From Candidatus Nitronauta litoralis (GTDB lineage Bacteria; Nitrospinota; Nitrospinia; Nitrospinales; Nitrospinaceae): a stretch of DNA of 64,000 bases. A program made the translations under genes and the position numbers. Position 1 is the stretch's first letter. Every line of letters begins with the position of its first letter. The stretch covers positions 124,001 through 188,000 of the forward strand of contig CP048685.1 in assembly GCA_015698285.1 (NCBI GenBank), written 5' to 3'. A model generated the notes under the pieces. It was not told the DNA's origin. It worked only from the letters and a program-made list of their open reading frames with translations, and ran no database searches. This document shows, one piece after another, positions 8-22,795 of the stretch.

Positions 8-1168
8 GTGGGTTGGGAAAAACTTGATGCCCCCATCAGTGAAGATAAGCCCGAAGGTGAGTCCCTCAGGTACGAGGGCACCTACGACAAAATACAGGAC
101 GCACGGAAACGGGACGATCCCAGACTCGAACAGGGTGTCTGGGAAACAGACCTGAAGCAAGCCGACTGGGACCTGGTCATCCAGCATTCAGTGGAGGCCC
201 TGGAAACACGCACCAAGGACCTCCAGATAGCAGCCTGGCTGCTCGAAGCCTGGACTTACCGTTACGGGTTTGAAGGAATCCGACACGGCCTGGAGGTGTT
301 GTTTCGTTTGTGCCAACATTTTTGGGATACGGTGTACCCCCAGATTGATGAAGAAGACTTTGACGCCAGGGTCCGCCCGTTTGAATGGATCAATTCCAAA
401 CTTACGATCCAATTAAAATTGATTCCCTTGTCTGCTCCAAAACTGAGCGAGCATGTACCGGTTACATTTGCAGACTATGAAATAGCAGCACGCAACGAGA
501 ATGAGGCAAGGAAAAATCAAAAAGCCCGGGAAAATCTCGAATCAGAGCTCAACTACAATCGTTTTTTTGCGAGTTGTGACCATACGCCGCCAGAATTCTA
601 CCGGGAACTGGCAACCCAGGTGCAAGGATCACGAGACCGGCTGAGGAACCTTGAAGGATACCTGGACGACAAATGCGGAAAGGAATCCCCCAGTCTGCTG
701 GAGTACAGGGAAGCTCTGCGGTCTATCAACCGGCTGCTGGAAGAGATCCTGAACCGGCAGGGAATTGAGGCTGAAGAAATTGACCCCCAGCCCGTTGGTC
801 AGCCGGCACAATCTATCGAGGAGGGAACCGAATCCGTGGATAACGAGGCCCTTGATGTAGAACAGAAAAACACTGGCTTGGAAAACCTGGGAAACAAGGA
901 TGAAACCACTCAGAGTAACGGTGTGTCTGGCCCCCCAGGGAAAATCAGGTCCAGAAGCGAAGCCTATCGTTTGCTCACTGAGGTTGCGGATTATCTCGAA
1001 CGTACCGAGCCACACAGCCCCACACCTCACCTCGTCCGGCGAGCGGTTTCATGGGGGGACATGACCCTCGATCAGTTATTGATAGAAATAGTGCGCGACG
1101 ATAACGATCTTCGATTCATTTACGACCTTCTGGGACTGGGAACAGGGCCAGAGGAAACAGACGATTAA
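8..1168 (+). CDS. tssA: T6SS protein TssA (ImpA N-terminal domain), 5' end at window edge
   Basis: This is a TssA-family protein, a cytoplasmic cap and assembly factor that helps prime and extend the type VI tail sheath. An ImpA_N domain covers roughly residues 5-130, with the family pattern WEKLDAPIS followed by GESLRYEGTYDKI and a Trp/Phe-rich helical core around the WDLVIQHSVEAL stretch. The middle (about 240-310) is Glu/Gln-rich and probably a flexible linker. The C-terminus is short and helical. The chosen start is GTG at 8, but the frame stays open to the window edge (CGG TGG precede it), so the true start may lie just outside. It is followed by tssB after a 94-base gap with a strong ribosome site, and the gene order fits a T6SS operon. 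The family call is firm; the exact TssA subclass is not resolved. Confidence 0.88.
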   Translation: MGWEKLDAPISEDKPEGESLRYEGTYDKIQDARKRDDPRLEQGVWETDLKQADWDLVIQHSVEALETRTKDLQIAAWLLEAWTYRYGFEGIRHGLEVLFRLCQHFWDTVYPQIDEEDFDARVRPFEWINSKLTIQLKLIPLSAPKLSEHVPVTFADYEIAARNENEARKNQKARENLESELNYNRFFASCDHTPPEFYRELATQVQGSRDRLRNLEGYLDDKCGKESPSLLEYREALRSINRLLEEILNRQGIEAEEIDPQPVGQPAQSIEEGTESVDNEALDVEQKNTGLENLGNKDETTQSNGVSGPPGKIRSRSEAYRLLTEVADYLERTEPHSPTPHLVRRAVSWGDMTLDQLLIEIVRDDNDLRFIYDLLGLGTGPEETDD

Positions 1169-1262
1169 TTTCAATGGGGATGGAATTTAGATTTTCAGTG
1201 TTTTTTTATAAGAGTTTTTACCTTTTTACTAACCAGATGGAAACCTCTAAAAAGGAGGGGAT

Positions 1263-1802
1263 ATGGCTGAAAGTATCCAGCATAAATTAGGCCGGGTTCG
1301 GCCACCCAGAGTCCAGATCACTTATGATGTGGAAACCCTGGGTGCGATCGAAATGAAAGAACTTCCGTTCGTTGTCGGAATCCTGGCGGACCTTTCGGGA
1401 AATCCCGAAGAACCGCTGCCGCTACTCAAGGAACGCAAGTTTGTCGAAATTGATCGGGATAACTTTAACGAGATCATGGCATCAATCGAGCCGCGTCTGA
1501 CCATGCGGGTCAAAAATACCATTCTGGATGACGATTCCCAACTCAATGTGGAATTGAAACTCCGTCACATGGATGACTTTGAACCAGTTGAAGTCGTCAA
1601 ACAGGTCCCTGCACTGCGCAAATTATATGAAGCACGCCAGAAGCTGAGCGACCTTCTCACCAAACTGGATGGTAATGATGAACTCGACCGTCTGTTGGGT
1701 GAAGTTGTCGAAAACACCGAAGGTCTGAACGAAATGAAAGCCGCCCGCCCTGCCGATGAAGAAGGCGAAGGAGCGGAAGGCGAGGAAGGAGGAGAAGGCT
1801 AA
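1263..1802 (+). CDS. tssB: T6SS contractile sheath small subunit TssB (VipA/ImpB)
   Basis: This is the small sheath subunit that co-polymerises with TssC into the contractile tube around Hcp. The N-terminal pattern SIQHKLGRVRPPRVQITYDV, the ELPFVVGILADLSG segment and the later LNVELKLRHMDDFEP segment are typical of the VipA family. The length of 179 residues is normal. A strong Shine-Dalgarno (AAAGGAGGGG) lies just before ATG 1263, which fixes the start. The C-terminal 25 residues are a Glu/Gly-rich acidic tail. The stop overlaps the tssC start by one base (TAATG), implying translational coupling and balanced sheath production. Confidence 0.96.
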   Translation: MAESIQHKLGRVRPPRVQITYDVETLGAIEMKELPFVVGILADLSGNPEEPLPLLKERKFVEIDRDNFNEIMASIEPRLTMRVKNTILDDDSQLNVELKLRHMDDFEPVEVVKQVPALRKLYEARQKLSDLLTKLDGNDELDRLLGEVVENTEGLNEMKAARPADEEGEGAEGEEGGEG

Positions 1803-3280
1803 TGGCTGAAGAAACCAGTGCAGAAGGCGGAGCCACAGCAGAAGAATTGAGCCTCGTCGACAATATCATTCAAAACGGCCGTATCGCCCGTGACGAATCC
1901 CAATTGGATTACGCCAAGGACCTCGTTGCCGAATTTGCAACACAAATTCTGGACGAGGGTATGACCGTCAACGCCGACACCGTGGCGATGATCAGTAACC
2001 GTATTGCCCAGATCGATGAGCTCATTACAAATCAGCTCAACGAAATCATGCACAACGAAGCTTTCCAGCAATTGGAAAGCTCCTGGCGCGGTATGAACTA
2101 TCTCGTTATGAACTCGGAAACAAGCACAACCCTGAAACTCCGGTTGATGAACGTTTCCAAAAAAGACCTTCTGAAAGACCTTGAAAAAGCGGTCGAGTTT
2201 GACCAGAGCGCGATGTTCAAAAAGGTCTACGAAGAAGAATACGGTACTTTTGGCGGGCACCCCTACAGCATGCTGGTCGGTGACTACGAATTCACCCGCC
2301 ATCCACAGGACATGGCATTGCTTGAAAAGATCTCGCAGGTGGCTGCAGCGGCACATTCTCCCTTTATTGCGGCTGCTCATCCACGCCTGTTTGATCTCGA
2401 CAGTTACACCGATCTGGGTGTTCCCCGGGATCTTGCAAAAATTTTCGAAAGTGCTGAGCTTATCAAATGGCGCTCGTTCCGTGAGTCAGAAGATTCCCGT
2501 TATGTGACTCTCACCCTGCCGCGCGCATTGATCCGCCTGCCCTATGGACCGGACACAGTCCCTGTAGAAGGTCTCGACTTCCGAGAAGATGTCGACGGTC
2601 GGGATCACAACAAATACGCATGGACCAACTCGGCCTGGGTATTAACCGAGCGGATCACAAACGCATTTTCATTACACGGCTGGGTCGCTGCAATTCGCGG
2701 TGTTGAAGGGGGCGGTAAGGTCGAAGGCCTGCCCACCCACACCTTCAAAACCGATGAGGGAGATATTGCGCTCAAGTGCCCTACTGAAATTTCCATTACT
2801 GACCGCCGGGAAAAGGAACTGAACGATCTGGGTTTCATCTCCTTGTGCCATTGTAAAGGCACGGATTATGCGGCCTTCTTTGGTGGAGCAACAACTAATA
2901 AACCCAAGGTCTACAATCTGGATGCGGCAAACGCCAACGCGCGCTTGTCAGCTCTGTTGCCTTATGTATTGAATGCCTCACGCTTTGCCCACTATCTCAA
3001 ATCGATCATGCGGGACAAAGTCGGTAGTTTTATGACGAAAGACAATGTTGCTTCTTACCTCAACAACTGGATAGCAAGCTACGTCCTGTTGAGTGATGAA
3101 GCAGGCCAGGAAACCAAAGCGAAGTACCCGCTCAGGGAAGCCCGCGTGGATGTAACGGAAATCCCCGGAAAACCTGGCTGCTACAACGCCGTTGTGTTCC
3201 TTCGCCCGCACTTCCAGTTGGAAGAATTAACGGCATCGATCCGTCTGGTGGCGGAACTGCCGCCTCCCGCTGGTGGCTAA
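1802..3280 (+). CDS. tssC: T6SS contractile sheath large subunit TssC (VipB/ImpC)
   Basis: This is the large sheath subunit, 492 residues, the normal length for VipB. Recognisable blocks include ESSWRGMNYLV near residue 95, the GDYEF motif near 160, FESAELIKWRSFRESED around 220, LPRALIRLPYG, and a C-terminal RPHFQLEELTASIRLVAELP that closes nearly all TssC proteins. With TssB it forms the cytoplasmic sheath that contracts to fire the Hcp tube and is then dismantled by ClpV. It starts on the ATG overlapping the tssB stop. A hairpin lies in the following gap before hcp. No truncation is visible. Confidence 0.97.
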   Translation: MAEETSAEGGATAEELSLVDNIIQNGRIARDESQLDYAKDLVAEFATQILDEGMTVNADTVAMISNRIAQIDELITNQLNEIMHNEAFQQLESSWRGMNYLVMNSETSTTLKLRLMNVSKKDLLKDLEKAVEFDQSAMFKKVYEEEYGTFGGHPYSMLVGDYEFTRHPQDMALLEKISQVAAAAHSPFIAAAHPRLFDLDSYTDLGVPRDLAKIFESAELIKWRSFRESEDSRYVTLTLPRALIRLPYGPDTVPVEGLDFREDVDGRDHNKYAWTNSAWVLTERITNAFSLHGWVAAIRGVEGGGKVEGLPTHTFKTDEGDIALKCPTEISITDRREKELNDLGFISLCHCKGTDYAAFFGGATTNKPKVYNLDAANANARLSALLPYVLNASRFAHYLKSIMRDKVGSFMTKDNVASYLNNWIASYVLLSDEAGQETKAKYPLREARVDVTEIPGKPGCYNAVVFLRPHFQLEELTASIRLVAELPPPAGG

Positions 3281-3293
3281 AAACTGATATACT

Positions 3294-3323
3294 ACCCGGG
3301 TTGCACTTTGTTGCAGCCCGGGT
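3294..3323 (+). promoter_or_regulatory. Hairpin between tssC and hcp
   Basis: ACCCGGGTTGC pairs with GCAGCCCGGGT across an 8-base loop, giving an 11-bp GC-rich stem with one G-U pair. It sits in the 101-base gap between tssC and hcp, the widest internal gap of the T6SS operon. The bases after it are T-rich but lack a clean U tract, so a full terminator is unlikely. A partial attenuator or an RNA-stabilising 5' structure for the highly used hcp message is more plausible. Confidence 0.5.
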
Positions 3324-3381
3324 TGGTTGTCATTCTAAATATGAGGCATCCAAATGACCTTTAATATGAAAGGAGTCATAC

Positions 3382-3885
3382 ATGGCTGGTGACATGTATA
3401 TGGAGATAGATGGGATCAAGGGAGAATCCACCGACAAGGATCACAAGGGCTGGTTTGAAATCCACTCTTACTCCTTTGCGGCCAATCAACCTGCAGCCGC
3501 CACCCGCAGTACGGCTGGTGGCGCAACGGTTGAACGGGTTTACCTGTCCGATTTCTCCGTAACCAAATCAATGGACATTGGAACCCCGGACATCGCATCG
3601 GCTTGTTGTACCGGCCGGGCACTCAAAAAAATCACAATCTCATGCTGGCGTTCGGATACAACCAGTGCCAAACCTACGCCGATTGAGTACATTAAATATG
3701 TTCTGTCCGACGCTATCATCACAAACTATTCTGTTTCTGGTGGCGCGGGTGATATTCCAAATGAGTCGATCTCGTTTAATTATGCAAAGATCACCTGGAA
3801 TTACCTGCCGCAGAAAGAAGGCGGCGGCGGTAAGGAAGGGAACAAAGAATCCGGTTGGGACCTGTTCAAGAATGAAGCGGTCTAA
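3382..3885 (+). CDS. hcp: T6SS tube protein Hcp (TssD)
   Basis: Hcp forms stacked hexameric rings that make the inner tube of the T6SS and is secreted when the sheath fires. The protein begins MAGDMYMEIDGIKGESTDKD, the classic Hcp opening, followed by the GWFEIHSYSF strand and the SVTKSMDIGTPDI block. Its 167 residues match the family, and no effector extension is fused. A gapped AAAGGAG lies before ATG 3382. A hairpin in the leader may boost its level relative to the sheath genes. The last 14 bases overlap the start of tssE. Confidence 0.97.
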   Translation: MAGDMYMEIDGIKGESTDKDHKGWFEIHSYSFAANQPAAATRSTAGGATVERVYLSDFSVTKSMDIGTPDIASACCTGRALKKITISCWRSDTTSAKPTPIEYIKYVLSDAIITNYSVSGGAGDIPNESISFNYAKITWNYLPQKEGGGGKEGNKESGWDLFKNEAV

Positions 3886-4372
3886 GGATCTTTGGCCACG
3901 TAAATCGAAACACGATCCCGCACGTGCGGGGCTTCTCGACCGTCTGGTCGACACAGACCTCAATTCGGACGAGGAGCCCCGTCCACAGCGGACCTACACA
4001 AAAGACGAATTATTTCTCTCCATCATTCGTGAACTGGACCGGGTACTCAACACCCGATGCATCGTTTCCAAATCCAACCTTAAAACACGCAACCGAAGTG
4101 TTATTGATTATGGGGTTGCCGACACCACAGGCATGAACCCAAATGCCGAGGACGATCACATCACCATCGCCCGAACCATAAAAGAAGCCATCATCCGTTA
4201 TGAACCCCGCCTTCAACAAGTCCAAGTCACGGTTGATGAAGCTGTCCCGAATGAACGATCAATCGTGGTCCGAATTGAAGGCATGGTCCAGTTGGATCAC
4301 ATCCGAGAACCCGTTTCGTTTCCCATCGCCATCCGAAACGACACCGGCAAAGTGACTGTGAATGCTGAATAG
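3872..4372 (+). CDS. tssE: T6SS baseplate protein TssE (gp25-like)
   Basis: TssE is the gp25-like wedge protein of the T6SS baseplate that nucleates sheath assembly. The ATG at 3872 inside the end of hcp gives a 166-residue protein beginning MKRSKDLWPRKSK and containing GLLDRLVD, the usual N-terminal motif. The gp25 core follows, with LNTRCIV, VIDYGV and TIARTIKEAIIRYEPRL. The frame is open much further upstream, but that part is antisense-like shadow within hcp and lacks family features. It overlaps tssF by 11 bases, suggesting coupled translation of the baseplate genes. Confidence 0.92.
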   Translation: MKRSKDLWPRKSKHDPARAGLLDRLVDTDLNSDEEPRPQRTYTKDELFLSIIRELDRVLNTRCIVSKSNLKTRNRSVIDYGVADTTGMNPNAEDDHITIARTIKEAIIRYEPRLQQVQVTVDEAVPNERSIVVRIEGMVQLDHIREPVSFPIAIRNDTGKVTVNAE

Positions 4373-6173
4373 CCAGGACGATCACCTACTTTATTTCCAA
4401 AGAGAACTGACCTACCTCCGAAAAATGGGGCAGGCCTTTGCCGAAAAATATCCAAAAGTCGCCGGCCGACTTGAGCTTGGCACCGAGCATAGCCAGGACC
4501 CCAATATCGAAAGGCTCATCGAAGCTTTCGCATTCCTGACAGCACGTATCCAGATTTCTATCGAGAACGAGTTTCCCGAAGTCAGTTCAGCTTTATTGAA
4601 TGTCCTGTATCCCCATTTCATGAACCCGGTGCCATCCATGAGCATCGCGCAATTTCAACCGGACCCGGAGCAGGGCCTTTTGACCAGCGGCCATCTCATC
4701 AAAAAACAAACTCCTTTGTTTTCAACCACAGGACAGGGTGAAATCTGCCGGTTCCGTACCTGCTACCCGGTCACCCTGTGGCCACTTGAAGTAAAAGAAG
4801 CGGTTTTCGAATCGACCGACAAATACGAGTTTCTTGATCAGGTTTCAGACATCGCTACCGTCCTGCGATTACGAATCTCCACCAATGGGGCCCCTCTGGA
4901 CAAGTTGAAACTGGACAACCTGGTTTTCTACCTCAACGACGAGTCTTCCACCTGTCATGAAATTTACGAATTACTCTTTTGCAATGTCCGGCAGGTCGGC
5001 TTACTGGCTGAAAATTCAAAAACACCGGTTTTTCTTCCTGAGGAAAGCATAACGCCCGTCGGGTTTGAACCGGATGAAGACATTCTTCCTTTTAATCGCC
5101 TGGCGCACCCTGGCTATCGCATGGTGCAGGAATATTTTACCTTCCCGGAAAACTATATGTTTTTCCGCGTGAAACATCTGAATCGAATCACATCAAAAAA
5201 AACCGTCGACCTGCTCATCCTGCTGGATCGCAAACCACGCGACCGTATGGTGATCACACCAAAAACATTTTGTCTTGGTTGCACGCCAATCATCAATTTG
5301 TTTACCAAAACATCAGAACCCATCCGCCTTGAAGGAAGAGAAACTGAATACCGCATTCAACCGGATCACAGGCGCGAGCGCATTACAGAAATCCACTCCA
5401 TTCTCAAAGTTTCAGGGTCCTCTGACCCCAAAGATGAAACACGCGACTATGCTCCTTTCTATTCATTCAATCATGAAATGACGAGCAAAGGCCAGGATGC
5501 GTTTTGGTACGCTGCACGCCAACCTACGGGGAGGAAAGATCTGCCTGGCACAGAAATGATTTTGAGATTCGTCGATCTCAAGTTCAATCCCCGGCAACCC
5601 CCATCTGAAATCATTTTCGCGCACACCCTGTGTACCAACAGGGATCTGGCGGAGCAGTTACCGGATAACGCAAAATTGCAAATTGAGGAGGCCGCGCCCT
5701 TACAATTCATCCGCTGCCTCAGGAAACCCACGCCGCAGTTGACCCCGGCCATGAGAGGGGAAACTCTGTGGAAACTCATTTCCCATTTATCCTTGAATCA
5801 CCTTTCCTTTTCAGATGGAGGCGCAGGCAGCCTCGCAGCCCTCAAGGAAATTCTCCGTTTGTACAGTTTTTCAAATCGGCAATCCTCCGAACAACAAGTT
5901 CAGGGATTGCGCGACATGCAATGCAGAAAAGTTGTTAGACGAGCGGGTCATGAAGCCTGGCGTGGATTTTGCCGGGGCACAGAAATCACGCTTACGTTCG
6001 ATGAGAAAGCCTACGTCGGCAACAGCGCGTTCTTAATGGCCTCAACTCTAAACAGGTTTTTTGCACTCTACGCATCTGTTAACTCCTTTACCCAACTGAT
6101 CATTAAAAGCGCCCAGCGCGACGGAACCTGGAAACGATGGCAACCTATGGTTGGCGAAAAGATCGTTCTTTAG
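4362..6173 (+). CDS. tssF: T6SS baseplate protein TssF (ImpG/VasA)
   Basis: TssF is a large T6SS baseplate wedge component that works with TssG and TssK. The 603-residue protein opens with YFQRELTYLRKMGQAFAEKYP, followed by VAGRLELG and the DPNIERLIEAFAFLTARI block, all diagnostic of VasA/ImpG. The C-terminus has the characteristic VVRRAGHEAWRGFCRGTEI segment, then a final domain ending in RDGTWKRWQPMVGEK. It overlaps tssE at its start and tssG by 37 bases at its end. Length and motifs are complete. Confidence 0.95.
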   Translation: MLNSQDDHLLYFQRELTYLRKMGQAFAEKYPKVAGRLELGTEHSQDPNIERLIEAFAFLTARIQISIENEFPEVSSALLNVLYPHFMNPVPSMSIAQFQPDPEQGLLTSGHLIKKQTPLFSTTGQGEICRFRTCYPVTLWPLEVKEAVFESTDKYEFLDQVSDIATVLRLRISTNGAPLDKLKLDNLVFYLNDESSTCHEIYELLFCNVRQVGLLAENSKTPVFLPEESITPVGFEPDEDILPFNRLAHPGYRMVQEYFTFPENYMFFRVKHLNRITSKKTVDLLILLDRKPRDRMVITPKTFCLGCTPIINLFTKTSEPIRLEGRETEYRIQPDHRRERITEIHSILKVSGSSDPKDETRDYAPFYSFNHEMTSKGQDAFWYAARQPTGRKDLPGTEMILRFVDLKFNPRQPPSEIIFAHTLCTNRDLAEQLPDNAKLQIEEAAPLQFIRCLRKPTPQLTPAMRGETLWKLISHLSLNHLSFSDGGAGSLAALKEILRLYSFSNRQSSEQQVQGLRDMQCRKVVRRAGHEAWRGFCRGTEITLTFDEKAYVGNSAFLMASTLNRFFALYASVNSFTQLIIKSAQRDGTWKRWQPMVGEKIVL

Positions 6174-7192
6174 AAGACTGGCTCTACGCAGAAGGACACG
6201 CCTTTGAGTTTTTCCAGGCGGTTCGTTTGCTGGAGTCCCTTCACCCCGAACGCATTCCTGCTGGAGAAGGCTCCGATCCCTCGAAGATCGTAGTAAAGTT
6301 CAGGGGGAAAACCGGACTCGACTTTCCACCCAACGAAGTTGAAGAGGTTATTCCGCCTGAGCAAGAGGGCGATGCCGTTGAAATGAAGGTGAACATCATG
6401 AGTCTTGCGGGAGCGCTCGGTCCCCTTCCCCACACCTACACTGAGGTGTTGCTGGAAAGACTGAAACATGATGACACGGCGCTTCGCGATTTCCTGGACA
6501 TTTTCAATCACCGGCTGATTTCACTCCTCTACCGTGTTCGCAAAACCATGCACCTGGGTTTTGACAACAAGGAACCGGGAAACAACGCCTTCCACAAATA
6601 TTTTCTTGCCTTAATGGGCCTGGGAACCGGGGGGTTGAAAAACCGGATGCAATCTCCGGACAAATCCTTGTTGTATTACACAGGGCTCTTGGCTCTCAAA
6701 CCCCGGTCTCTTGCAGGATTGGAAAATATCACTTCCCATTTTTTTAATATTCCGGTGAAAGGGAAGTCACTTACAGGAAGGTGGTATACTCTCGAAGAGG
6801 ATCAATTGACCTCCATTGGCATTTTCGGAAAGAACAGGAGCCTGGGTCAAAACATCGTTCTCGGTAGTAAGGTCTGGGACCAGGAACGCTCATTCCGACT
6901 GGTTGTCGGTCCGTTGACTTTTCGCCAGTTTGAAGACTTCCTTCCTATCAATCCCGGATTCCAGCACCTATGCGAAATAACCCGCTTCTACACTGGCGAT
7001 GAATTCGATTTTGACGTTCAATTAAAACTGAAATCGGCCGAAGTTCCTGCATCGCGTTTGAGCCACAGACAAGGTCCCCGTCTCGGCTGGACCTCCTGGC
7101 TCCGGACCCGCTTTTTCCGCAACGATGACGACCAGGTGGTCCTGTCCCCTAACAGAATCCCTTCAAAGGCCCAACCGAACCATGAAAACTGA
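6137..7192 (+). CDS. tssG: T6SS baseplate protein TssG (ImpH/VasB)
   Basis: TssG is the TssF partner in the T6SS baseplate wedge. The 351-residue protein shows the ImpH pattern: an N-terminal EDWLYAEGHAFEFFQAVRLL helix, VKFRGKTGLDFPPNEV, LAGALGPLPHTYTEVLLER and the DFLDIFNHRLISLLYR block, all typical of VasB. ATG 6137 lies inside tssF, giving a 37-base overlap. The C-terminus is basic and includes LGWTSWLRTR. The last bases overlap clpV by 11. Confidence 0.95.
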   Translation: MATYGWRKDRSLEDWLYAEGHAFEFFQAVRLLESLHPERIPAGEGSDPSKIVVKFRGKTGLDFPPNEVEEVIPPEQEGDAVEMKVNIMSLAGALGPLPHTYTEVLLERLKHDDTALRDFLDIFNHRLISLLYRVRKTMHLGFDNKEPGNNAFHKYFLALMGLGTGGLKNRMQSPDKSLLYYTGLLALKPRSLAGLENITSHFFNIPVKGKSLTGRWYTLEEDQLTSIGIFGKNRSLGQNIVLGSKVWDQERSFRLVVGPLTFRQFEDFLPINPGFQHLCEITRFYTGDEFDFDVQLKLKSAEVPASRLSHRQGPRLGWTSWLRTRFFRNDDDQVVLSPNRIPSKAQPNHEN

Positions 7193-9833
7193 CCTCAAGG
7201 AACTGATCGGCAAACTCAACGGCACCTGCCGGACCTGTCTTGAAACCGCAGCTGCGCTATGCGTTTCCCAAACCAATTATAACGTTGAGATGGAGCATTT
7301 CCTGGTCAGACTCCTCGAAACTCCGGACTCGGACCTCAATCGCATCCTGAAATATTATGACCTCGATGCTAGTGAAATAAACCGTGAACTCATGGCAGCT
7401 ATCGACCAGTTTGATCGCGGTAACAATCGCACCCCTGCTTTCTCTCTTCATCTTATGCAAATGTTTGAAGAAGGCTGGATCATGTCTTCCCTGGTATTCG
7501 GGGAACCCCAAATAAGATCCGGAGCTATCCTGCTCGGGTTGCTTAGTCACGAGGCCCTTCGTGGAGTACTCGTTGAATCATCGAAAACATTACTTGAGAT
7601 ACCTCGACATAAATTACGGCAGGATGTAAAAGAACTTTGCAAAGGAACTGTAGAAGATTCAGGACCAAAGGCGGCTACGCCAAGAGGAGACGCGGGAACA
7701 AAAGGTAATGGTTCAAACCCAACGACCCAGAGCAAAGCGGCCTCGGATCCAAAATCCAAAAATCCCGCTCTTGACCAATTCACAATCAATCTGACCGAGC
7801 GCGCACGGGAAGGCCAGATCGACCCCATCCAGGGGCGCGATTTTGAAATCCGGCAAGTCATCGACATCCTCACACGTCGTCGCCAGAATAACCCGATCCT
7901 CACCGGAGAGGCGGGCGTAGGGAAAACCGCCGTAGCCGAGGGTTTTGCCCTGCGTATCGCGGTGGGCGATGTCCCCCCATCTTTAAAACAAGTTGCTCTC
8001 CACAGTCTCGATCTCGGGTTGTTACAAGCGGGAGCAGGTGTTAAGGGAGAATTCGAGAATCGTCTCAAATCGGTTATCAACGAAGTCAAGGCGTCACCCA
8101 CCCCGATCATCCTGTTTATCGATGAGGCCCACACCCTTATTGGCGCAGGAGCTGGGGGGCAACAAGGGCAAAGTGACGCCGCAAACCTGCTTAAACCTGC
8201 CTTAGCTCGAGGTGAATTGCGGACTATTGCCGCCACCACGTGGTCAGAATACAAAAAATATTTCGAAAAAGACCCGGCACTCACCCGAAGATTTCAAGTA
8301 GTCAAGGTGGATGAGCCGTCACCTGATGTGGCCATCGATATGGTTCGCGGGATCGTCGAACATCTTGAGAAGCACCATGAGGTCGTTATCCTCGACGAAG
8401 CGGTTTCTGATGCCGTGATTTTATCTGACCGCTACATTACAGGCCGGCAACTTCCCGACAAGGCCATAAGTGTTCTGGATACTGCCTGTGCACGGGTTGG
8501 GTTGGGACAAAATGCTACACCTCCTAAAGTGGAAGATGCCCAACGACGCATCGAATTGTTACGCCTGGAAATTGAAATTCTAAAGCGTGAGGAAACAGCA
8601 GGACGTTCACACAAGGATCGTCTGGAAAACCTGCAGGAGCAGTTGAAATCCACACAATCAAACCTGGAACAGTTGGAGAAACGCTGGTACCAGGAGCAGG
8701 ACATGGTAAAAGAAATTCACGAGCTTCGCGAAGAAGAAAATGACTCCGCCCAAAAAATAATAGCACTTGAGAATAAACTGGAGGCCTTCCAGGGTGAAGA
8801 ACCCATGGTTCCTGTATTTGTGGATTCAAGGGTGGTTGCCTCTGTGATTTCAGGATGGACGGGAATACCTGTTGGTAAAATGCTCACAAACGAAATCCAG
8901 AATGTTTTGGATCTGAAAAACAATCTCCAGGAGCGTGTCATTGGACAAGACTCTGGTCTTGAAGCCATCTGCAGGCGCATTCGCACCTCTCGAGCAGATC
9001 TGGATGATCCGGAGAAGCCGGTCGGAGTTTTCCTTCTCGCAGGGCCAAGCGGTGTTGGAAAAACAGAAACGGCACTGGCCCTGGCCGATTTGCTTTTCGG
9101 TGGCGAACGGAATCTGGTCAAAATCAATATGTCCGAATACCAGGAATCGTACACCGTTTCCAATCTCAAGGGATCACCACCAGGTTACGTTGGTTTCGGT
9201 CAGGGTGGAGTGCTCACCGAAGCTGTACGTCGCGCACCCTATAGTGTGGTGCTGCTTGATGAGATTGAAAAAGCGCACAATGATGTGGTCGAGCTTTTTT
9301 ACCAGGTGTTCGATAAAGGAGAAATGGAAGACAGCGAAGGAGTGCAGGTTGATTTCAAAAACACCGTGATCCTGTTGACCTCGAATGCTGGAAGCGATGT
9401 GATTATGAGTCTTTGCCAGAACGGTGGCCCGTCACCTTCAGCCGGTGACCTTGAAAAAGCCCTCAGACCCGAACTGCTCAAAACCTTCAAACCTGCTTTT
9501 CTTGGACGTACGGTGATTGTTCCCTACTTTCCTCTCGGTGACGGAGAAATACGCGACATCACTCGCCTAAAGCTCGCCAAAATCCAGGGTCGTTTTGAGG
9601 ACAACCACCGTGCAAAACTAAATTTTGACGATTCTGTTATCGAGGCTGTAGTGGAACGATGCACTGAAGTCGAATCCGGCGCCCGCAATGTAGATCATAT
9701 TCTGACCCACACACTATTGCCCGATCTAGGGAAAACGATGTTGGAAAAAATGGCGGAAGGCACCAGTGTCGAGACAGTGCAGGTAACTTTGAACCCGGAT
9801 GGCAACTTTGCCTACGAGATAAGGAACACGTAA
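7182..9833 (+). CDS. clpV: T6SS sheath-recycling AAA+ ATPase ClpV (TssH)
   Basis: ClpV is the Hsp100-type unfoldase that disassembles contracted TssBC sheath. The protein has 883 residues from ATG 7182. An N-terminal Clp-N domain (about 1-150) precedes a Lys/Ser/Thr linker. AAA+ domain 1 has Walker A GEAGVGKT near residue 241 and FIDEAHTL as Walker B. A coiled middle domain spans about 445-540. AAA+ domain 2 has Walker A GPSGVGKT near residue 620 and VVLLDEIEKAH. Family length is normal. The frame extends 57 bases upstream to another ATG, but 7182 aligns with the conserved ClpV opening and overlaps the tssG stop by 11 bases. It abuts vgrG directly. Confidence 0.95.
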   Translation: MKTDLKELIGKLNGTCRTCLETAAALCVSQTNYNVEMEHFLVRLLETPDSDLNRILKYYDLDASEINRELMAAIDQFDRGNNRTPAFSLHLMQMFEEGWIMSSLVFGEPQIRSGAILLGLLSHEALRGVLVESSKTLLEIPRHKLRQDVKELCKGTVEDSGPKAATPRGDAGTKGNGSNPTTQSKAASDPKSKNPALDQFTINLTERAREGQIDPIQGRDFEIRQVIDILTRRRQNNPILTGEAGVGKTAVAEGFALRIAVGDVPPSLKQVALHSLDLGLLQAGAGVKGEFENRLKSVINEVKASPTPIILFIDEAHTLIGAGAGGQQGQSDAANLLKPALARGELRTIAATTWSEYKKYFEKDPALTRRFQVVKVDEPSPDVAIDMVRGIVEHLEKHHEVVILDEAVSDAVILSDRYITGRQLPDKAISVLDTACARVGLGQNATPPKVEDAQRRIELLRLEIEILKREETAGRSHKDRLENLQEQLKSTQSNLEQLEKRWYQEQDMVKEIHELREEENDSAQKIIALENKLEAFQGEEPMVPVFVDSRVVASVISGWTGIPVGKMLTNEIQNVLDLKNNLQERVIGQDSGLEAICRRIRTSRADLDDPEKPVGVFLLAGPSGVGKTETALALADLLFGGERNLVKINMSEYQESYTVSNLKGSPPGYVGFGQGGVLTEAVRRAPYSVVLLDEIEKAHNDVVELFYQVFDKGEMEDSEGVQVDFKNTVILLTSNAGSDVIMSLCQNGGPSPSAGDLEKALRPELLKTFKPAFLGRTVIVPYFPLGDGEIRDITRLKLAKIQGRFEDNHRAKLNFDDSVIEAVVERCTEVESGARNVDHILTHTLLPDLGKTMLEKMAEGTSVETVQVTLNPDGNFAYEIRNT

Positions 9834-11912
9834 ATGGCAAAATACGATGACGAAAACCTGAGCCTTAAACTCACCACTCCACTGGGGGCAGACAAGCTCC
9901 TGCTGAAAACATTCCATGGAGAGGGAAAAATTTCAGAACCCTATTTTTTCTACCTGGAAATGGTTTCGCAGGAATACGAACTGGATTTTGACAAGATAGT
10001 GGGCGAAGACATCACCATCACCATGGACTTGAGCACGGGTGAAAAAAAATATTTTCACGGCATCTGCACGCGCTTTATTCAGGGTGCGTACGATGGAACC
10101 GAGTGTAAGTACTTTGCAGAAATTCGTCCATGGCTCTGGCAATTACACCTGACACGTGACAGCCGGATATTCCAGGAAATGAAAATTCCAGACATTATCA
10201 CCAAAGTATTCGACGACCTGGGCTTCACTGATTACAAGGACAGCCTGACCGGTACTTACGAGGAAGTTGAATACTGCGTTCAATACCAGGAAACAGCGTA
10301 TAACTTTGTGCAACGCCTGATGGAAGACAATGGCATCTGTTATTACTTCGATCACGCCGAGGATAAACATACCCTGATTCTGTCTGATGATTCCACCGCC
10401 CACCCGGAATGCCCTGGAGTACCAACCGTCAGTATGAGCCCTCCGGATAGTTCCATGATCGAGGATGATACAGTCAGCCAGATCTCTTTGGAAAAATCCG
10501 TCGCGACAGGAAAATATGCGATGGACGACTTTGACTTTGAAACCCCTGCGACCGACCTGCTGGTATCCGATGTTGATGCATTAAAAGAGCATAAAACAAC
10601 AGACCTTAGAGTTTATGAATATCCGGGCGGTTTTACAAAATCGGCCAAGGGAGACAGTAAAGCAAAAATCAGGATGGAGTCATTGGAATACCCAGTGCGA
10701 CTTGTTAATGGACAGAGTAATTGCAGGGACTTTCGTTCGGGTTACAAATTCACCCTGGAAGAGCACGAGCGGGAAGACATCAACGACACCTATATGATCT
10801 ATAGTGTGAACTTCACAGCAACCCAGGACTCCTACCACAACTCCTTTGTCGCCTTCCCGGCAGACACACCATTTCGTCCTGCAACAGAAACACCAAAACC
10901 GCGAATTGTTGGGACTCAAACCGCATTGGTGGTCGGAAAAGCTGGAGAAGAAATCTACACAGACAAGTACGGTCGGGTTAAAGTCCAGTTTCATTGGGAT
11001 CAGGAAGGCACCTACAATGAAGACAGTTCCTGTTGGATACGGGTCACACAGGGATGGGCTGGAAAAAGCTGGGGAAATATTTTTATTCCCCGTATCGACA
11101 TGGAAGTGGTGGTGAGCTTCCTGAATGGTGATCCGGACCGGCCACTGATAACAGGCTGTGTTTACAATGCCGACCAGACGGTACCCTACGAATTGCCTGC
11201 CAATCAAACACAAAGCACAATCAAATCGGATTCTTCCAAAGATGCTGAAGGTTTCAATGAACTCCGGTTTGAAGACAAAGCAGACGAAGAGGAAATATTT
11301 GTTCACGCCCAAAAAGATATGAACATCGAAGTCCTGAATGATGAAACCCGCACCATCACAAAAAACCGCACCACTACAATTGAAGAAGAAAACGACACTC
11401 TCACCGTCTCGAAGGGAGACCGGACATTTGAAGTCACCGAGGGCAATGAAACCACCACCATTGGAGGGGACCGCGAAATCACGGTGTCTGGAGATGAAAC
11501 GCGAACTAACGAAGGTGATTACACAGTCAAGGTGGATGGTGATTACAAAATCACAGTAGAAGGCGACCTCACCATTGAGGTGACGGGCAAGATATCTATT
11601 TCCACTGATGACAATTATGAACTCGCTGTCAGTGGTGACTACAGTAATGAGGTTGATGGCGATGTTTCCACGACAGCAGGTGGAGACCTGTCAGAAGAAT
11701 CCGATGGTGACATTACAGTCACCGCAAGTGGAGATTTGAAAAACGAATCCGATGGTGACCTTACCAACTCGGCAGGTGGCGACGTAACAGTCGAATCGGA
11801 TGGCGATGTTTCTGTAACCGCTACCAATGAAGCAACGGTCAGTGGTATGAATGTCACAGCATCAGCAGATGTTGAAGCTGCCGTTTCCGGAAGTACCGTC
11901 TCACTGGGGTAA
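9834..11912 (+). CDS. vgrG: T6SS spike protein VgrG (TssI) with extended Gly-Asp repeat needle
   Basis: VgrG forms the trimeric spike on the Hcp tube. In this 692-residue protein the gp27-like part spans about 1-380, including VQYQETAYNFVQRLMEDNGI and YYFDH. The gp5 OB-fold follows, with YTDKYGRVKVQFHWD, SSCWIRVTQGWAGKSWG and PRIDMEVVVSFLNGDPDRP. From about residue 510 to 680 the chain is a run of roughly 8-residue units carrying Gly-Asp, as expected for a triple beta-helix needle. No catalytic effector domain is fused beyond it; the end is a short Ser/Ala/Val tail. Translation starts on the base after the clpV stop, so expression is tightly linked. Only four bases separate it from the next gene, which makes that gene a candidate VgrG-associated factor. 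Confidence 0.95.
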   Translation: MAKYDDENLSLKLTTPLGADKLLLKTFHGEGKISEPYFFYLEMVSQEYELDFDKIVGEDITITMDLSTGEKKYFHGICTRFIQGAYDGTECKYFAEIRPWLWQLHLTRDSRIFQEMKIPDIITKVFDDLGFTDYKDSLTGTYEEVEYCVQYQETAYNFVQRLMEDNGICYYFDHAEDKHTLILSDDSTAHPECPGVPTVSMSPPDSSMIEDDTVSQISLEKSVATGKYAMDDFDFETPATDLLVSDVDALKEHKTTDLRVYEYPGGFTKSAKGDSKAKIRMESLEYPVRLVNGQSNCRDFRSGYKFTLEEHEREDINDTYMIYSVNFTATQDSYHNSFVAFPADTPFRPATETPKPRIVGTQTALVVGKAGEEIYTDKYGRVKVQFHWDQEGTYNEDSSCWIRVTQGWAGKSWGNIFIPRIDMEVVVSFLNGDPDRPLITGCVYNADQTVPYELPANQTQSTIKSDSSKDAEGFNELRFEDKADEEEIFVHAQKDMNIEVLNDETRTITKNRTTTIEEENDTLTVSKGDRTFEVTEGNETTTIGGDREITVSGDETRTNEGDYTVKVDGDYKITVEGDLTIEVTGKISISTDDNYELAVSGDYSNEVDGDVSTTAGGDLSEESDGDITVTASGDLKNESDGDLTNSAGGDVTVESDGDVSVTATNEATVSGMNVTASADVEAAVSGSTVSLG

Positions 11913-11916
11913 TCGT

Positions 11917-12696
11917 ATGGCCCTGTCACAGGAAAAATCTACCGAAGGTCTGGACAAAACGCCACCAAAAGCATCTAAGGCTTCTGAAGGCAATGGGAAA
12001 CCCTCAACTCCCGCTGATAAAAAAGTTGAAGGCAAAGACGGAACGCTCCTTAAACGCTTTCCACTAAAAGAAAACAAAAAACATGGAGAAGCAAAAATCT
12101 ATGACAAGGAAGGGAAGCTCATCCGTAAAGAGCATTATGTAAATGGAGTTTTGGAGGGACCTGTCACACAATTCGATTTTAATGGCACAATCAGCAAACA
12201 GCTCACAATAAAGAATGGAAAGCTTGAAGGGGCTTTACTTAGATACAACAAGGGAGTTTTATCCAGCAGCACTCAATACCGTGCAGGAAAGCGACATGGT
12301 GAGCAACTCATTTATAGTGAGCAGGAAAAACTTCTCGTAAAAAGAAACTATGTTCAGGACAGGCTTCAGGGAGAGGTCATTGGCTATGATGGACAAGACA
12401 ATGAAATCTCAAAAGTAACCTATGTAAATGATTTGCGGCATGGTCCCAGCATTGGAAACTACCCTGGAGGTGGCATTCGAGAAAAAGCACATTTTCAGAA
12501 CGACCGGTTGGAAGGCGAACGCATTCGCTATCATGTAAACGGCAAACCCAGAGAGATTCAAAGTTTCAAAGAGGGAAAATCACTGGGCCCTCCTACATTT
12601 TATAAAGACAGCGGCGAACCTGAAGAGCCCCCCGGGACTCCTCCGAAAGAAAAAGGATGGCTGGAAAAAATCCTGGATTTCATTTTCGGAAACTAA
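11917..12696 (+). CDS. YwqK/MORN-like repeat protein downstream of vgrG
   Basis: This 259-residue protein has a Lys/Ser/Pro-rich N-terminus (about 1-45) and then a chain of YwqK/MORN-like units. Examples are KHGEAKIYDKEGKLIRKEHY, VNGVLEGPV, KNGKLEGALLRYN, AGKRHGEQLIYSEQ and ERIRYHVNGKPREIQSF, each about 22-24 residues. Such repeats form elongated beta-sheet surfaces; some are annotated as antitoxin components, others bind partners. There is no signal peptide. The C-terminus (GWLEKILDFIFGN) is hydrophobic. The start chosen is ATG 11917, four bases after vgrG, so the two are surely cotranscribed. By context it could be a VgrG adaptor, an effector or an immunity protein; the sequence does not decide. 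Confidence 0.75.
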   Translation: MALSQEKSTEGLDKTPPKASKASEGNGKPSTPADKKVEGKDGTLLKRFPLKENKKHGEAKIYDKEGKLIRKEHYVNGVLEGPVTQFDFNGTISKQLTIKNGKLEGALLRYNKGVLSSSTQYRAGKRHGEQLIYSEQEKLLVKRNYVQDRLQGEVIGYDGQDNEISKVTYVNDLRHGPSIGNYPGGGIREKAHFQNDRLEGERIRYHVNGKPREIQSFKEGKSLGPPTFYKDSGEPEEPPGTPPKEKGWLEKILDFIFGN

Positions 12697-12698
12697 CC

Positions 12699-12773
12699 AT
12701 GCGCATCGTTTTCACCTTTCCCTTCCTGATTTTAAATCTCCCTTTTGATCCCGGAAACAACTTCAATTTATGA
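12699..12773 (+). CDS. Possible 24-codon leader ORF upstream of SPOR gene
   Basis: A short frame from ATG 12699 encodes a hydrophobic 24-residue peptide (MRIVFTFPFLILNLPF and onward). It ends at the TGA that overlaps the ATG of the next gene as TTATGA. The overlap would allow translational coupling of the SPOR protein gene to the upstream message. There is no clear ribosome site and no family match, so it may be chance. Confidence 0.25.
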   Translation: MRIVFTFPFLILNLPFDPGNNFNL

Positions 12774-13690
12774 AACTCATTATTCGCCTTGTTGTTTTGA
12801 TTGTAGTTGCCCTTTTTCTATTCACGGGTGGGTTCTGGCTGGGCAATCAATGGAGGGGGAATTCGGTGGGAATCCCGGATGGCGATTTATTAGCCAAACT
12901 CCCCGGCAAAGACCAGGGCGCACCTAAACCAGAAGATTCCAATATCACAACACCCAATGAACAAAATACATTGGAAAGCTCTGAAAACAGAAAAAAAAAT
13001 TCCAACGAAAAATTGCTTTCTCCGAAAGAACCCAACAAGCCAAAAGAGTCAGCCGGGTTATCCCCTGAACCTCCTCCTCAAGCAAACGATGCAAATGCTG
13101 CAACCACAAAAACCAAAACCATTCCACCTGAGAAAACTATTCAACCCGCCCTCCAGAGTGAGACGGCTGCAGGTCCTGAGAAAAAAATTGACCCCGCTCC
13201 TGCTGAAGTTCAGCCTTCTCCTGAAAAGACAACGCCTCCACTTGCCTCAGCAAATGCAACCTCTCAGCCTAAACAAAAAGAAAATAAGGAATCACTTTCT
13301 CTGATTGTCACTCCCGAGGATCTGGGTAAAAGCCAAATCACTTACTCCGTACAAGTGGGGACCTATCTGGACAAAGATCTGGCTCGCATTCGTCTGGATC
13401 AACTTAAGGCCAAACAATACCCCGCATTTTTGGTCAGTGCCTGGGACCACCAAAAGCAACTTTGGTACACGGTGCGAGTGGGCCGATACACAGACATTAT
13501 GAAAGCTCAAATGGCTGCGAAAGAAATCACAATGAAGGAACGTATTCCCGCTACCGTTTATGGCCTGGGTTCGTTAAGATATGAGGATGCTCAGGAATCG
13601 ACCAAGACTTCACCTGAAAATATGGCACCTGCCGAAAAAAAATCTGCCACTCAAACCAGTCCACCTGCAAAGGAGGATTCAAGCTTATGA
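12770..13690 (+). CDS. SPOR-domain membrane protein
   Basis: The protein has 306 residues. One N-terminal membrane helix (about residues 2-25, LIIRLVVLIVVALFLFTGGF) precedes a long Pro/Lys/Glu/Thr-rich linker (about 45-175). A SPOR domain lies around 187-265, with YSVQVGTYLDKDLARIRLDQ and WYTVRVGRYTD. A polar tail follows. SPOR domains bind denuded glycan strands of peptidoglycan, usually at the septum, so this is a single-pass inner-membrane protein reaching into the periplasm. It lies in the same transcription direction as the T6SS operon and overlaps the next gene by four bases (ATGA). A role in anchoring or local remodelling of the wall for the secretion machine is possible but only inferred; a general cell-division role is equally possible. 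Confidence 0.8.
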   Translation: MKLIIRLVVLIVVALFLFTGGFWLGNQWRGNSVGIPDGDLLAKLPGKDQGAPKPEDSNITTPNEQNTLESSENRKKNSNEKLLSPKEPNKPKESAGLSPEPPPQANDANAATTKTKTIPPEKTIQPALQSETAAGPEKKIDPAPAEVQPSPEKTTPPLASANATSQPKQKENKESLSLIVTPEDLGKSQITYSVQVGTYLDKDLARIRLDQLKAKQYPAFLVSAWDHQKQLWYTVRVGRYTDIMKAQMAAKEITMKERIPATVYGLGSLRYEDAQESTKTSPENMAPAEKKSATQTSPPAKEDSSL

Positions 13691-14106
13691 ACCCGCAAGA
13701 GAACCTTGAAGTGTGGATAAGCACCGTTGGCTTGTTGCGCGCGAAGCTCAGTCAAACGATGAAAGGAATCAATGATCTCAGGCAGGAGTGTCGGAAACGG
13801 CAGTGCTTTGCCCCGAATGAGCTGAGTCCCTTGATGGCGGAGGCGCAGGAACTGTTCGTAGAAATGCTGAAAGCCGGTGAATTTCTGGGGACAACGCAGG
13901 AAAACCTGAATCGCAACCCGTCCGAGACCTTTGAAGATTATCTTGAAGACTGGGCGCTGACTCAAACCGAGGACCGGTTTAAAAGAGTAAAGGACTTTCT
14001 GATTGTATTATCAGAAACTCAAATCAGTGGACTGGAACTTGAAAAAGAAATCTGGGAAGAAGGAATTAAACTGATAGAAGAAGCGCTTATCAGGAAACCA
14101 GCTTAA
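13687..14106 (+). CDS. Unrecognised 139-residue helical protein, last gene of the T6SS-linked run
   Basis: This gene is not recognised. The protein is soluble and mostly helical by its pattern of Leu, Glu, Lys and Gln. It begins MNPQENLEVWISTVGLLRAK and contains LMAEAQELFVEMLKAGEF. It has no signal peptide, membrane segment or metal motif. It overlaps the SPOR gene by ATGA, so it is translationally coupled to it. It ends 12 bases before a convergent gene, which marks the end of the + strand transcription unit. It resembles a small accessory or chaperone-like protein only in general character. Confidence 0.6.
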   Translation: MNPQENLEVWISTVGLLRAKLSQTMKGINDLRQECRKRQCFAPNELSPLMAEAQELFVEMLKAGEFLGTTQENLNRNPSETFEDYLEDWALTQTEDRFKRVKDFLIVLSETQISGLELEKEIWEEGIKLIEEALIRKPA

Positions 14107-21557: not shown

Positions 21558-21947
21558 ATGGGCTATCTGGTTTGCGACGGAGCAACAATTTCCTGTGCTG
21601 GTTCTGTCGGGCAGAGTTCGTGCAGCCTGACTGTTTTGAACGCCATGATCACCTCAGACGACAACGCTCAGGCGACCATTATGGATTACGTTCCTTATAT
21701 GAACGTTGCCTCATTTGGTCAATGCAACCTGAGCTCCAACCCCATGGTGGCCGCGGCTACGGCCGCAGCATTGGGCGTTCATACACCTGTCACCTGTGTC
21801 CCCATGACCGTTTCACCATGGATCGTTGGAAGCCCGACCATTACGGTCAACAACCTTCCTGCCCTGACAGACGACTCCACCCTGATGTGCACCTGGGGCG
21901 GCAGCATCAGTGTAGACGATGCCGGTCAATCCGTTGTTGAGTACTAA
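21558..21947 (+). CDS. PAAR-like DUF4280 protein (candidate T6SS spike tip)
   Basis: The protein has 129 residues from ATG 21558, preceded by GGGAG. It matches the DUF4280/PAAR-like layout: YLVCDGATISCAGS at the start, then VLNAMITSDDN, IMDYVPYMNVASFGQCNLSS, the Ala-rich VAAATAAALGVHTPVTC, VSPWIVGSPTITVNNLPAL, and LMCTWGGSISV near the end. Four or more Cys and a Gly-rich end are conserved. Such proteins cap VgrG-type spikes of contractile injection systems. It lies about 9.6 kb from vgrG, as a lone gene between two opposite-strand genes. By family it could complete the needle built by the operon at the window start. Confidence 0.85.
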   Translation: MGYLVCDGATISCAGSVGQSSCSLTVLNAMITSDDNAQATIMDYVPYMNVASFGQCNLSSNPMVAAATAAALGVHTPVTCVPMTVSPWIVGSPTITVNNLPALTDDSTLMCTWGGSISVDDAGQSVVEY

Positions 21948-21974: not shown

Positions 21975-22418
21975 CTAGGAAGAACAGTCAAAAGTTCCGT
22001 TGTCGTTCCAGGAAATTTTGATGTAATCCGGGAGTTTAGTATCACGATCAATATTGGCATCCTCGATCTGGTCGCAGGTAAGGTTCACCGCACCGGATAA
22101 ATCCGCACCATTGAGCCAGGTATCCAGCATTTCAGCTTCGCTAAAATTTGCACCCGTCAGGTTTGCTTCTGCAAGGACAGCGTTGGATAAATCCGCGCCG
22201 GACAAATCAGCTCCGGATAAATTAGCGCGGATCAAATAGGTAGTACTTAAATCCGCTTCCTTAAGTTTTGCATTATCCAGTTCGGCTTCCATTAGTTTCA
22301 AATTGCTTAGGTCTTCACCAGAGAGCTGTTGCTTTCGGCTTTCCAAATCCTTTCGGATTCCAATCCACTCAGCCAGCATTTTGTTGCCTTCTTCACTAAG
22401 GCTCCCATCGTTTTTCAC
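21975..22418 (-). CDS. Pentapeptide-repeat protein
   Basis: The protein has 147 residues when started at GTG 22418, where AAGGAAGG lies at good distance upstream. Longer ATG starts lie further upstream but would add an Arg-rich stretch with no conserved look. After a helical lead (KMLAEWIGIRKDLESRKQQL) there are about 16 pentapeptide units of the A(D/N)LXX type, such as LIRANLSGADLSGADLSNAV and LAEANLTGANFSEAEM. These form a right-handed quadrilateral beta helix. The C-terminus (CDQIEDANIDRDTKLPDYIK) is typical of many small pentapeptide proteins. The function is not predictable from the fold. It is convergent with the PAAR-like gene. Confidence 0.8.
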   Translation of the reverse strand: MKNDGSLSEEGNKMLAEWIGIRKDLESRKQQLSGEDLSNLKLMEAELDNAKLKEADLSTTYLIRANLSGADLSGADLSNAVLAEANLTGANFSEAEMLDTWLNGADLSGAVNLTCDQIEDANIDRDTKLPDYIKISWNDNGTFDCSS

Positions 22419-22795
22419 AATTGAATCCTTCCTTCTAGAAAAATAAAAATTTTTGATGTAGACTTCCCGTGAATTCAGGAGAGATGCACAACACTCCTTC
22501 ATTACCGATGTATTGTAGCATCCCCTCCTCCTCAGGAAAATTCTGTTCCTTCTGCTTTCTTTTCTCCAACGGTTTTCCAAACTGGATTTACGCCAGTCCT
22601 GCATTTGAGACAACCGGGAATTGTCAGGAGTTTTGGAGCCTCCAGAGTTTTCACCATGGACATGGCTGATCTTTTTGAAGCATTTCAGAAACCAGCTTAA
22701 AAATTTTTCTCTGGCAAAACTTCCTGGAAATTTTTCAGGTGTCGATTAGAGCCACTAAATATCCGCTACGCTCCACCAACCCTTCGGAGGATTTT
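22419..22795. other. Gene-poor stretch between pentapeptide and CHC2 genes
   Basis: This 377-base stretch has divergent genes on both sides and should hold their promoters. The right end has the ribosome site CGGAGG for the next gene. I see no hairpin with a U tract, no RNA gene and no family-like reading frame. Very short frames such as ATG 22653-22700 (14 codons) are not convincing. Confidence 0.5.

What the first reader, a model, noticed from the sequence alone, without database searches (positions are those of the whole stretch)
11917..14106. vgrG-linked tail module: YwqK-like repeats, SPOR protein, 139-residue protein
Three genes follow vgrG with four-base gaps or overlaps and the same direction, ending at a convergent gene. 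VgrG islands usually carry adaptors, effectors and immunity proteins. None of these looks like a known toxin, and a SPOR protein in such an island is unusual. The YwqK-like protein could carry or neutralise cargo, and the SPOR protein could target the peptidoglycan.
Basis: inference. Interest (0 to 1): 0.6.

Follow-up and report, generated by a model that had tools for sequence, protein, structure and literature searches.

The report
T6SS spike cassette with SPOR anchor
Behind the spike gene of a bacterial molecular harpoon (type VI secretion system) sit a known kind of spike-associated MORN-repeat protein, a membrane protein with a cell-wall-binding SPOR domain that recurs in the same kind of harpoon in distant phyla and may be its missing cell-wall anchor, and a small lineage-specific helical protein of unknown role.

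Summary
The genes are real and co-directional behind vgrG, but the YwqK–SPOR gap is 73 nt, not four. The locus is the downstream end of a complete T6SS cluster (tssJKLM/A–G, hcp, clpV, vgrG). The YwqK-like gene is a MORN protein that follows vgrG in three families of the window's order and in other phyla, where a DUF4280 (PAAR-like) gene usually comes next. This matches known vgrG–MORN–PAAR-like loci: tseF of P. aeruginosa H3 and P. phymatum T6SS-b (i4a). In the window the DUF4280 gene lies 7.6 kb further on (21558–21947). A single-pass SPOR protein recurs in this T6SS class in Acidobacteriota and Alphaproteobacteria, after DUF4280 or beside tssJ. TssL in 19 of 19 such T6SSs lacks a peptidoglycan-binding domain. 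Ten T6SSs with OmpA-tailed TssL, nearly all in the same genomes, have no SPOR gene in the 12–35 kb read around each. Best reading: the SPOR protein is a TagL-like wall anchor or positioning factor for short-TssL T6SSs. This is inferred, untested, and absent from some members. The 139-residue protein is a predicted four-helix bundle found only in seven genomes of the window's order, always beside the SPOR gene; in another family that pair lies away from the T6SS next to cheB.

The parts
9834..11912 (+). vgrG (TssI)
   Evidence: Pfam Phage_GPD 2.4e-92, TIGR03361 5.7e-193
11917..12696 (+). YwqK-like / MORN_2 repeat protein (259 aa): disordered N-terminus, MORN beta-sheet solenoid, short C-terminal helix; TseF-like by position and repeats
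   Evidence: PF07661 1.3e-15; AF2 pLDDT 86, Foldseek top hits MORN1 structures E 1.8e-7; after vgrG in three families of the order and in other phyla
12770..13690 (+). single-pass inner-membrane protein: N-terminal TM, ~205-residue linker and tail rich in P/A/S/T/E/K, SPOR domain (about residues 190-269), short tail
   Evidence: PF05036 1.2e-9; one hydrophobic segment only, linker composition; SPOR proteins of the same build in other T6SS clusters
13687..14106 (+). 139-residue protein (X139), predicted cytosolic four-helix bundle, order-restricted, always next to the SPOR gene
   Evidence: AF2 pLDDT 91; no Pfam, no NCBIfam, no significant PDB fold match; 7 genomes in the phylum; 0 confident hits in 50 other genomes with vgrG
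21558..21947 (+). DUF4280 PAAR-like spike-tip protein, displaced about 7.5 kb downstream of SPOR-X139; same place in both congeners
   Evidence: PF14107 1e-27 at G000:C1:145570-145929 and in G001, G002; ORF; NCBIfam IglG model 5.8e-6, below cut-off
8..9833 (+). T6SS core tssA, tssB, tssC, hcp, tssE, tssF, tssG, clpV directly upstream
   Evidence: Pfam; tssJ, K, L, M further upstream in L032

Best explanation
This is the downstream end of a complete T6SS cluster. The YwqK-like MORN protein is a spike-associated protein of the TseF kind: it most likely docks on VgrG and/or the PAAR-like DUF4280 tip and leaves the cell with them. The SPOR protein is an accessory of the T6SS membrane complex: held in the inner membrane by one helix, it reaches through a long flexible linker and binds denuded glycan strands. 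It thereby does in trans what the OmpA-type tail of TssL, or TagL, does elsewhere, tethering or positioning the TssJLM complex at glycan freshly exposed by amidases. The 139-residue helical protein is a lineage-specific cytosolic partner of the SPOR protein. Shown: gene order, domains, short TssL, recurrence across phyla, absence near OmpA-TssL systems. Inferred: binding, anchoring, secretion and partnership.
For: Complete T6SS. vgrG-YwqK in families f1, f3 and f4 of the order at 27-29% YwqK identity. Of 80 VgrG loci found by similarity alone, 66 had 3 kb downstream: YwqK and DUF4280 co-occur (10 both, 1 YwqK only, 2 DUF4280 only, 53 neither; Fisher 3e-9); SPOR within 5.5 kb in 4 of 13 cassette loci versus 0 of 53 (p = 0.001). 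SPOR lies after DUF4280 (L220, L222, L224, L226, L229, L230, L249) or between the cassette and tssJ (L227, L238, L241, L242, L244). Each of 17 SPOR proteins from 16 loci matches PF05036, some only weakly (E up to 0.1). TssL of 19 such T6SSs matches DotU and no other Pfam family; ten OmpA-tailed TssL systems, most of them in genomes with a cassette, have no SPOR gene in the regions read. 'T6SS lacking a PG-binding domain' is an acknowledged gap (PMC8253398); DotU-SPOR fusions are a precedent (PMC3326028). TseF: MORN protein next to vgrG3, secreted (PMC5379069).
Against: Several cassette clusters have short TssL and no SPOR gene (Burkholderiales L231-L235, L236, L243), so the SPOR protein is not obligatory. 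In family f4 of the order SPOR and X139 are unlinked from the T6SS and followed by cheB. Cluster regions for one search were partly chosen because SPOR had been seen, so only the counts are unselected on the SPOR side. SPOR proteins usually serve septation. No binding or anchoring data exist. Homology of the window protein to TseF itself was not tested by sequence.
Confidence: 0.5

Rival explanations
1. SPOR and X139 form an envelope or septation pair unrelated to secretion that happens to lie after the T6SS genes in this genus.
For: In family f4 SPOR-X139-X139' is followed by cheB, in G014 on a 389-kb contig without tssF. 73-nt spacer between YwqK and SPOR. G020 has X139 but no TssF hit (71% complete).
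Against: SPOR recurs beside the same T6SS cassette in other phyla. In the order X139 tracks TssF: 6 of 8 TssF genomes against 1 of 56 without, p = 2.5e-6, relatedness not corrected (counts).
Confidence: 0.25
2. The YwqK-like protein is an immunity protein or antitoxin, as annotation pipelines name it.
For: Called 'YwqK family antitoxin' in P. phymatum T6SS-b (PMC8356804) and in a Paracaedibacter-like endosymbiont (PMC8163844).
Against: No toxin gene between vgrG and it; VgrG shows no C-terminal toxin domain in Pfam. Its usual neighbour is the PAAR-like tip gene. Relatives are conserved at family level, unlike typical immunity genes. TseF is reported as secreted (PMC5379069).
Confidence: 0.12
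3. The MORN protein is a cytosolic chaperone or adaptor that loads the PAAR-like tip or cargo onto VgrG and is not itself secreted.
For: Position between vgrG and DUF4280 is that of adaptor genes; YwqK and DUF4280 co-occur; the published activity of TseF is called contentious in a review (PMC12133291).
Against: TseF reported as a secreted H3-T6SS substrate (PMC5379069).
Confidence: 0.3
4. The SPOR protein is itself cargo that aims the spike or an effector at the prey's septal peptidoglycan.
For: Gene follows the spike-tip gene in several clusters.
Against: Single N-terminal TM and long periplasmic linker, typical of an inner-membrane protein; in other clusters the gene sits next to tssJ instead.
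Confidence: 0.07

Closest known systems
P. aeruginosa H3-T6SS vgrG3-tseF (PA2374)-PA2375 (DUF4280)
   Same: vgrG followed by a MORN-repeat protein; PA2375 was tested as a DUF4280 protein (PMC5379069, PMC5014421)
   Different: Window protein is longer (259 vs 178 aa); DUF4280 gene displaced about 7.5 kb; SPOR and X139 follow. No iron-uptake evidence here. H3 genes were not fetched for comparison.
Paraburkholderia phymatum T6SS-b (SecReT6 family i4a)
   Same: vgrG-YwqK-PAAR-like order (PMC8356804)
   Different: There a hypothetical protein and transport genes follow, and no SPOR is mentioned; related Burkholderiales loci here show an 82-aa TM protein without SPOR (L105)
TagL / OmpA-tailed TssL / TagP / TagN / TagW peptidoglycan anchors of T6SS
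   Same: Proposed role: tie the TssJLM complex to peptidoglycan, as a separate accessory where TssL is short (PMC8253398, PMC10433429)
   Different: SPOR domain (denuded glycan) instead of the OmpA fold; one TM, not the three of TagL
DotU (TssL)-SPOR fusions
   Same: SPOR domain joined to a T6SS membrane component (14 proteins, PMC3326028)
   Different: Here SPOR is a separate protein
IglG / DUF4280 PAAR-like family
   Same: Window 21558-21947 matches PF14107
   Different: No N-terminal IglG-type extension

Membership tests
TseF-like vgrG-linked MORN protein | MORN/MORN_2 repeats | tested here: met
   PF07661 1.3e-15; fold match to MORN1 crystal structures
TseF-like vgrG-linked MORN protein | gene directly follows vgrG, with DUF4280 in the locus | tested here: met
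   4-nt gap; DUF4280 present but about 7.5 kb away
TseF-like vgrG-linked MORN protein | sequence homology to TseF itself | not tested
   TseF sequence not fetched
TseF-like vgrG-linked MORN protein | secreted by the T6SS; binds PQS vesicles, FptA, OprF | not testable with these tools
   needs experiment
T6SS peptidoglycan-anchoring accessory (TagL-like role) | inner-membrane protein with periplasmic peptidoglycan-binding domain | tested here: met
   one N-terminal TM, C-terminal SPOR; by sequence only
T6SS peptidoglycan-anchoring accessory (TagL-like role) | encoded in the T6SS cluster where TssL lacks such a domain | tested here: met
   TssL 19/19 DotU only; clusters
T6SS peptidoglycan-anchoring accessory (TagL-like role) | binds peptidoglycan and the TssJLM complex; needed for firing | not testable with these tools
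   needs experiment
TagL family proper | OmpA-type domain | tested here: not met
   Only SPOR found in Pfam for the window protein; not filed as TagL
SPOR-domain protein | SPOR fold motif | tested here: met
   PF05036 above cut-off in the window protein; 17/17 members match PF05036 at E <= 0.1, some below cut-off
YwqJ-YwqK type toxin-antitoxin | adjacent cognate toxin gene | tested here: not met
   neighbours are vgrG and SPOR; no toxin domain in Pfam
Known helical chaperones/adaptors (for the 139-residue protein) | family-model or significant fold match | tested here: not met
   no Pfam, no NCBIfam, best PDB E 0.14

The most novel reading that the evidence does not exclude
A widespread T6SS subclass, marked by vgrG-MORN-DUF4280 and short TssL, is tied to the cell wall by a stand-alone SPOR protein. 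Its firing sites would then be set by denuded, freshly amidase-cut glycan (for example at the septum), with X139 as a lineage-specific cytosolic link to the baseplate or membrane complex.
Probability: 0.3. Interest if true: 0.72.

Novelty: new variant of a known kind. Interest (0 to 1): 0.52.

Why it matters
How T6SSs whose TssL lacks a peptidoglycan-binding tail are held in the cell wall is an acknowledged gap (PMC8253398). A SPOR protein that recurs in such clusters in several phyla, and is missing near OmpA-TssL systems mostly of the same genomes, gives a concrete candidate and a simple test. SPOR domains recognise denuded glycan at division sites (general knowledge of the family), so it would also predict where these machines assemble. 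The broad vgrG-MORN-PAAR-like linkage suggests that TseF, whose iron role is called contentious (PMC12133291), may belong to a general spike component.

Tried and rejected
Promoter/terminator scan: no more matches than shuffles. 24-codon ORF in the YwqK-SPOR spacer: not conserved. X139 fold search: generic four-helix bundles, best E 0.14, so no function read from it. X139 in 50 other genomes with vgrG: one sub-threshold fragment with a stop (E 0.014), dismissed. Acidobacteriota DUF4280 sample gave few loci. PDB sequence search with the SPOR alignment: only a sporulation amidase SPOR domain, 1x60. The C-terminal amphipathic helix of YwqK proteins is common but not general, so not used as a family mark. 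PAAR (PF05488) in family f4 genomes is not on the T6SS contig. The cluster-level Fisher tests printed were set aside because clusters were partly chosen for SPOR.

Full report
OBSERVATION. The vgrG-YwqK gap is 4 nt and SPOR/X139 overlap by 4 nt, but YwqK-SPOR is 73 nt apart, so 'four-base gaps or overlaps' is only partly true. X139 is a real gene: conserved in both congeners (71 and 61% identity in the genome search), with changes against one of them concentrated at third codon positions (33/23/71).

SURROUNDINGS. Upstream lies a complete T6SS: tssA, B, C, hcp, E, F, G, clpV in the window and tssJ, K, L, M with a kinase, a PP2C phosphatase and a VWA protein just before it. Downstream, beyond the convergent block, is a DUF4280 gene at 21558-21947, the PAAR-like spike tip; it is found in both congeners too.

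CONSERVATION IN THE ORDER. Among 64 genomes of the order 8 have TssF. The two congeners keep all four genes in order. Family f3 (G013) and family f4 (G014, G016, G018) keep vgrG-YwqK (YwqK 27-29% identical where complete). In f4 the SPOR gene is elsewhere, in an operon SPOR-X139-X139'-cheB, and f4 has no DUF4280 but a PAAR on another contig. X139 occurs only in these 7 genomes of the 77 searched in the phylum, always beside a SPOR gene. Six of the seven have TssF; the seventh (G020) is 71% complete. X139 tracks TssF (Fisher 2.5e-6), but related genomes are counted separately, so this is suggestive only.

CONSERVATION ELSEWHERE. A scan of GTDB contigs with a VgrG alignment gave 80 loci from many phyla. 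Of 66 with at least 3 kb downstream, 10 have both YwqK and DUF4280, 1 YwqK only, 2 DUF4280 only and 53 neither (p = 3e-9). SPOR lies within 5.5 kb in 4 of the 13 cassette loci and in none of the other 53 (p = 0.001). DUF4280 searches added further examples. Reading the whole clusters shows two placements of the SPOR gene: directly after DUF4280, or between the cassette and tssJ. Its build is constant where the reading frame is complete: one TM, a long P/A-rich linker, a C-terminal SPOR domain. One ORF (L230) showed no TM segment, two showed a second weaker hydrophobic stretch in their stop-to-stop reading, and one (L238) is cut by its contig end. Each of 17 SPOR proteins, from 16 loci, matches PF05036, some only weakly. 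TssL of 19 T6SSs of this class is DotU only. Ten T6SSs with OmpA-tailed TssL, most of them in genomes that also carry a cassette, have no SPOR gene in the 12-35 kb read around each. Some clusters of the class have neither (Burkholderiales L231-L235; L236; L243). In one of those Burkholderiales an 82-residue TM protein with a similar N-terminus stands in the SPOR gene's place (L105), which may be a remnant. Caution: five of the cluster regions were chosen because SPOR had been seen there, so only the counts are unselected. Taking only genomes reached through the VgrG scan and checked on both sides, SPOR is present in 6 of 11 cassette clusters (G077, G082, G084, G085, G086, G088 against G090, G108, G111, G116, G124) and 0 of 10 OmpA-type clusters (hand calculation, one-sided 462/54264 = 0.009).

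WHAT THE PARTS ARE. The YwqK-like protein folds confidently as a MORN sheet with a disordered N-terminus and a C-terminal helix. A MORN protein next to vgrG is TseF of P. aeruginosa H3-T6SS, described as secreted and as co-localised with vgrG in diverse bacteria (PMC5379069); PA2375 is a DUF4280 protein (PMC5014421). P. phymatum T6SS-b (i4a) has vgrG-YwqK-PAAR-like (PMC8356804), and a Paracaedibacter-like endosymbiont has [ywqK-vgrG] (PMC8163844). So the vgrG-MORN linkage is known; 'antitoxin' is only a pipeline name. X139 models as a four-helix bundle (pLDDT 91) with no significant structural match.

MECHANISM. Shown: synteny, domains, TssL type. Inferred: the MORN protein rides on or loads the VgrG/DUF4280 spike. 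The SPOR protein, with its TM, linker and glycan-binding domain, supplies the wall contact that short TssL lacks, in the manner of TagL but with a different domain. The literature says that in some T6SSs the peptidoglycan-binding domain sits on separate accessories such as TagL and that systems lacking one may borrow outside proteins (PMC8253398); 14 DotU-SPOR fusions exist (PMC3326028). A literature search for SPOR domain, type VI secretion and VgrG together found only that paper and one unrelated genome report, so a stand-alone SPOR accessory appears undescribed in the library held here. X139 would be its cytosolic partner in this lineage.

VERDICT. An ordinary T6SS with a known spike cassette, plus a recurring SPOR protein that is a good and testable candidate for an unrecognised T6SS accessory. 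Novelty: new variant of a known kind.

Noticed in passing
window 18656-20503 (-): Secreted M12B/reprolysin-like metallopeptidase (Mep72-like below cut-off) between X139 and the DUF4280 gene; a homologue lies a few kb from the SPOR-X139 locus of G018 (L024 3671-5542), and might be T6SS-linked.
   Followed up: partly
L032 8040-10265 (window upstream, G000:C1): 741-aa right-handed beta-helix (NosD-like) protein inside the T6SS regulatory block, with matches in the T6SS clusters of G001 (L253) and a Pyrinomonadaceae genome (L220).
   Followed up: no
L022, L024, L026: SPOR - X139 - X139' - cheB (response-regulator methylesterase) operon with a DUF547 gene nearby in family f4; tandem X139 copies.
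   Followed up: partly
L105 9999-10247: 82-residue TM protein after DUF4280 in a Burkholderiales locus resembles the N-terminus of the SPOR proteins but has no SPOR domain; possible remnant.
   Followed up: no
L241 2949-4757: Two different SPOR-protein ORFs side by side upstream of tssJ in Azospirillum brasilense.
   Followed up: no
window 21975-22613 (-): Pentapeptide-repeat protein convergent to the PAAR-like DUF4280 gene.
   Followed up: no
L025 145-2350 (-): Three ORFs of 151-152 aa in a row and a 239-aa ORF after YwqK in G018, no convincing Pfam match.
   Followed up: no
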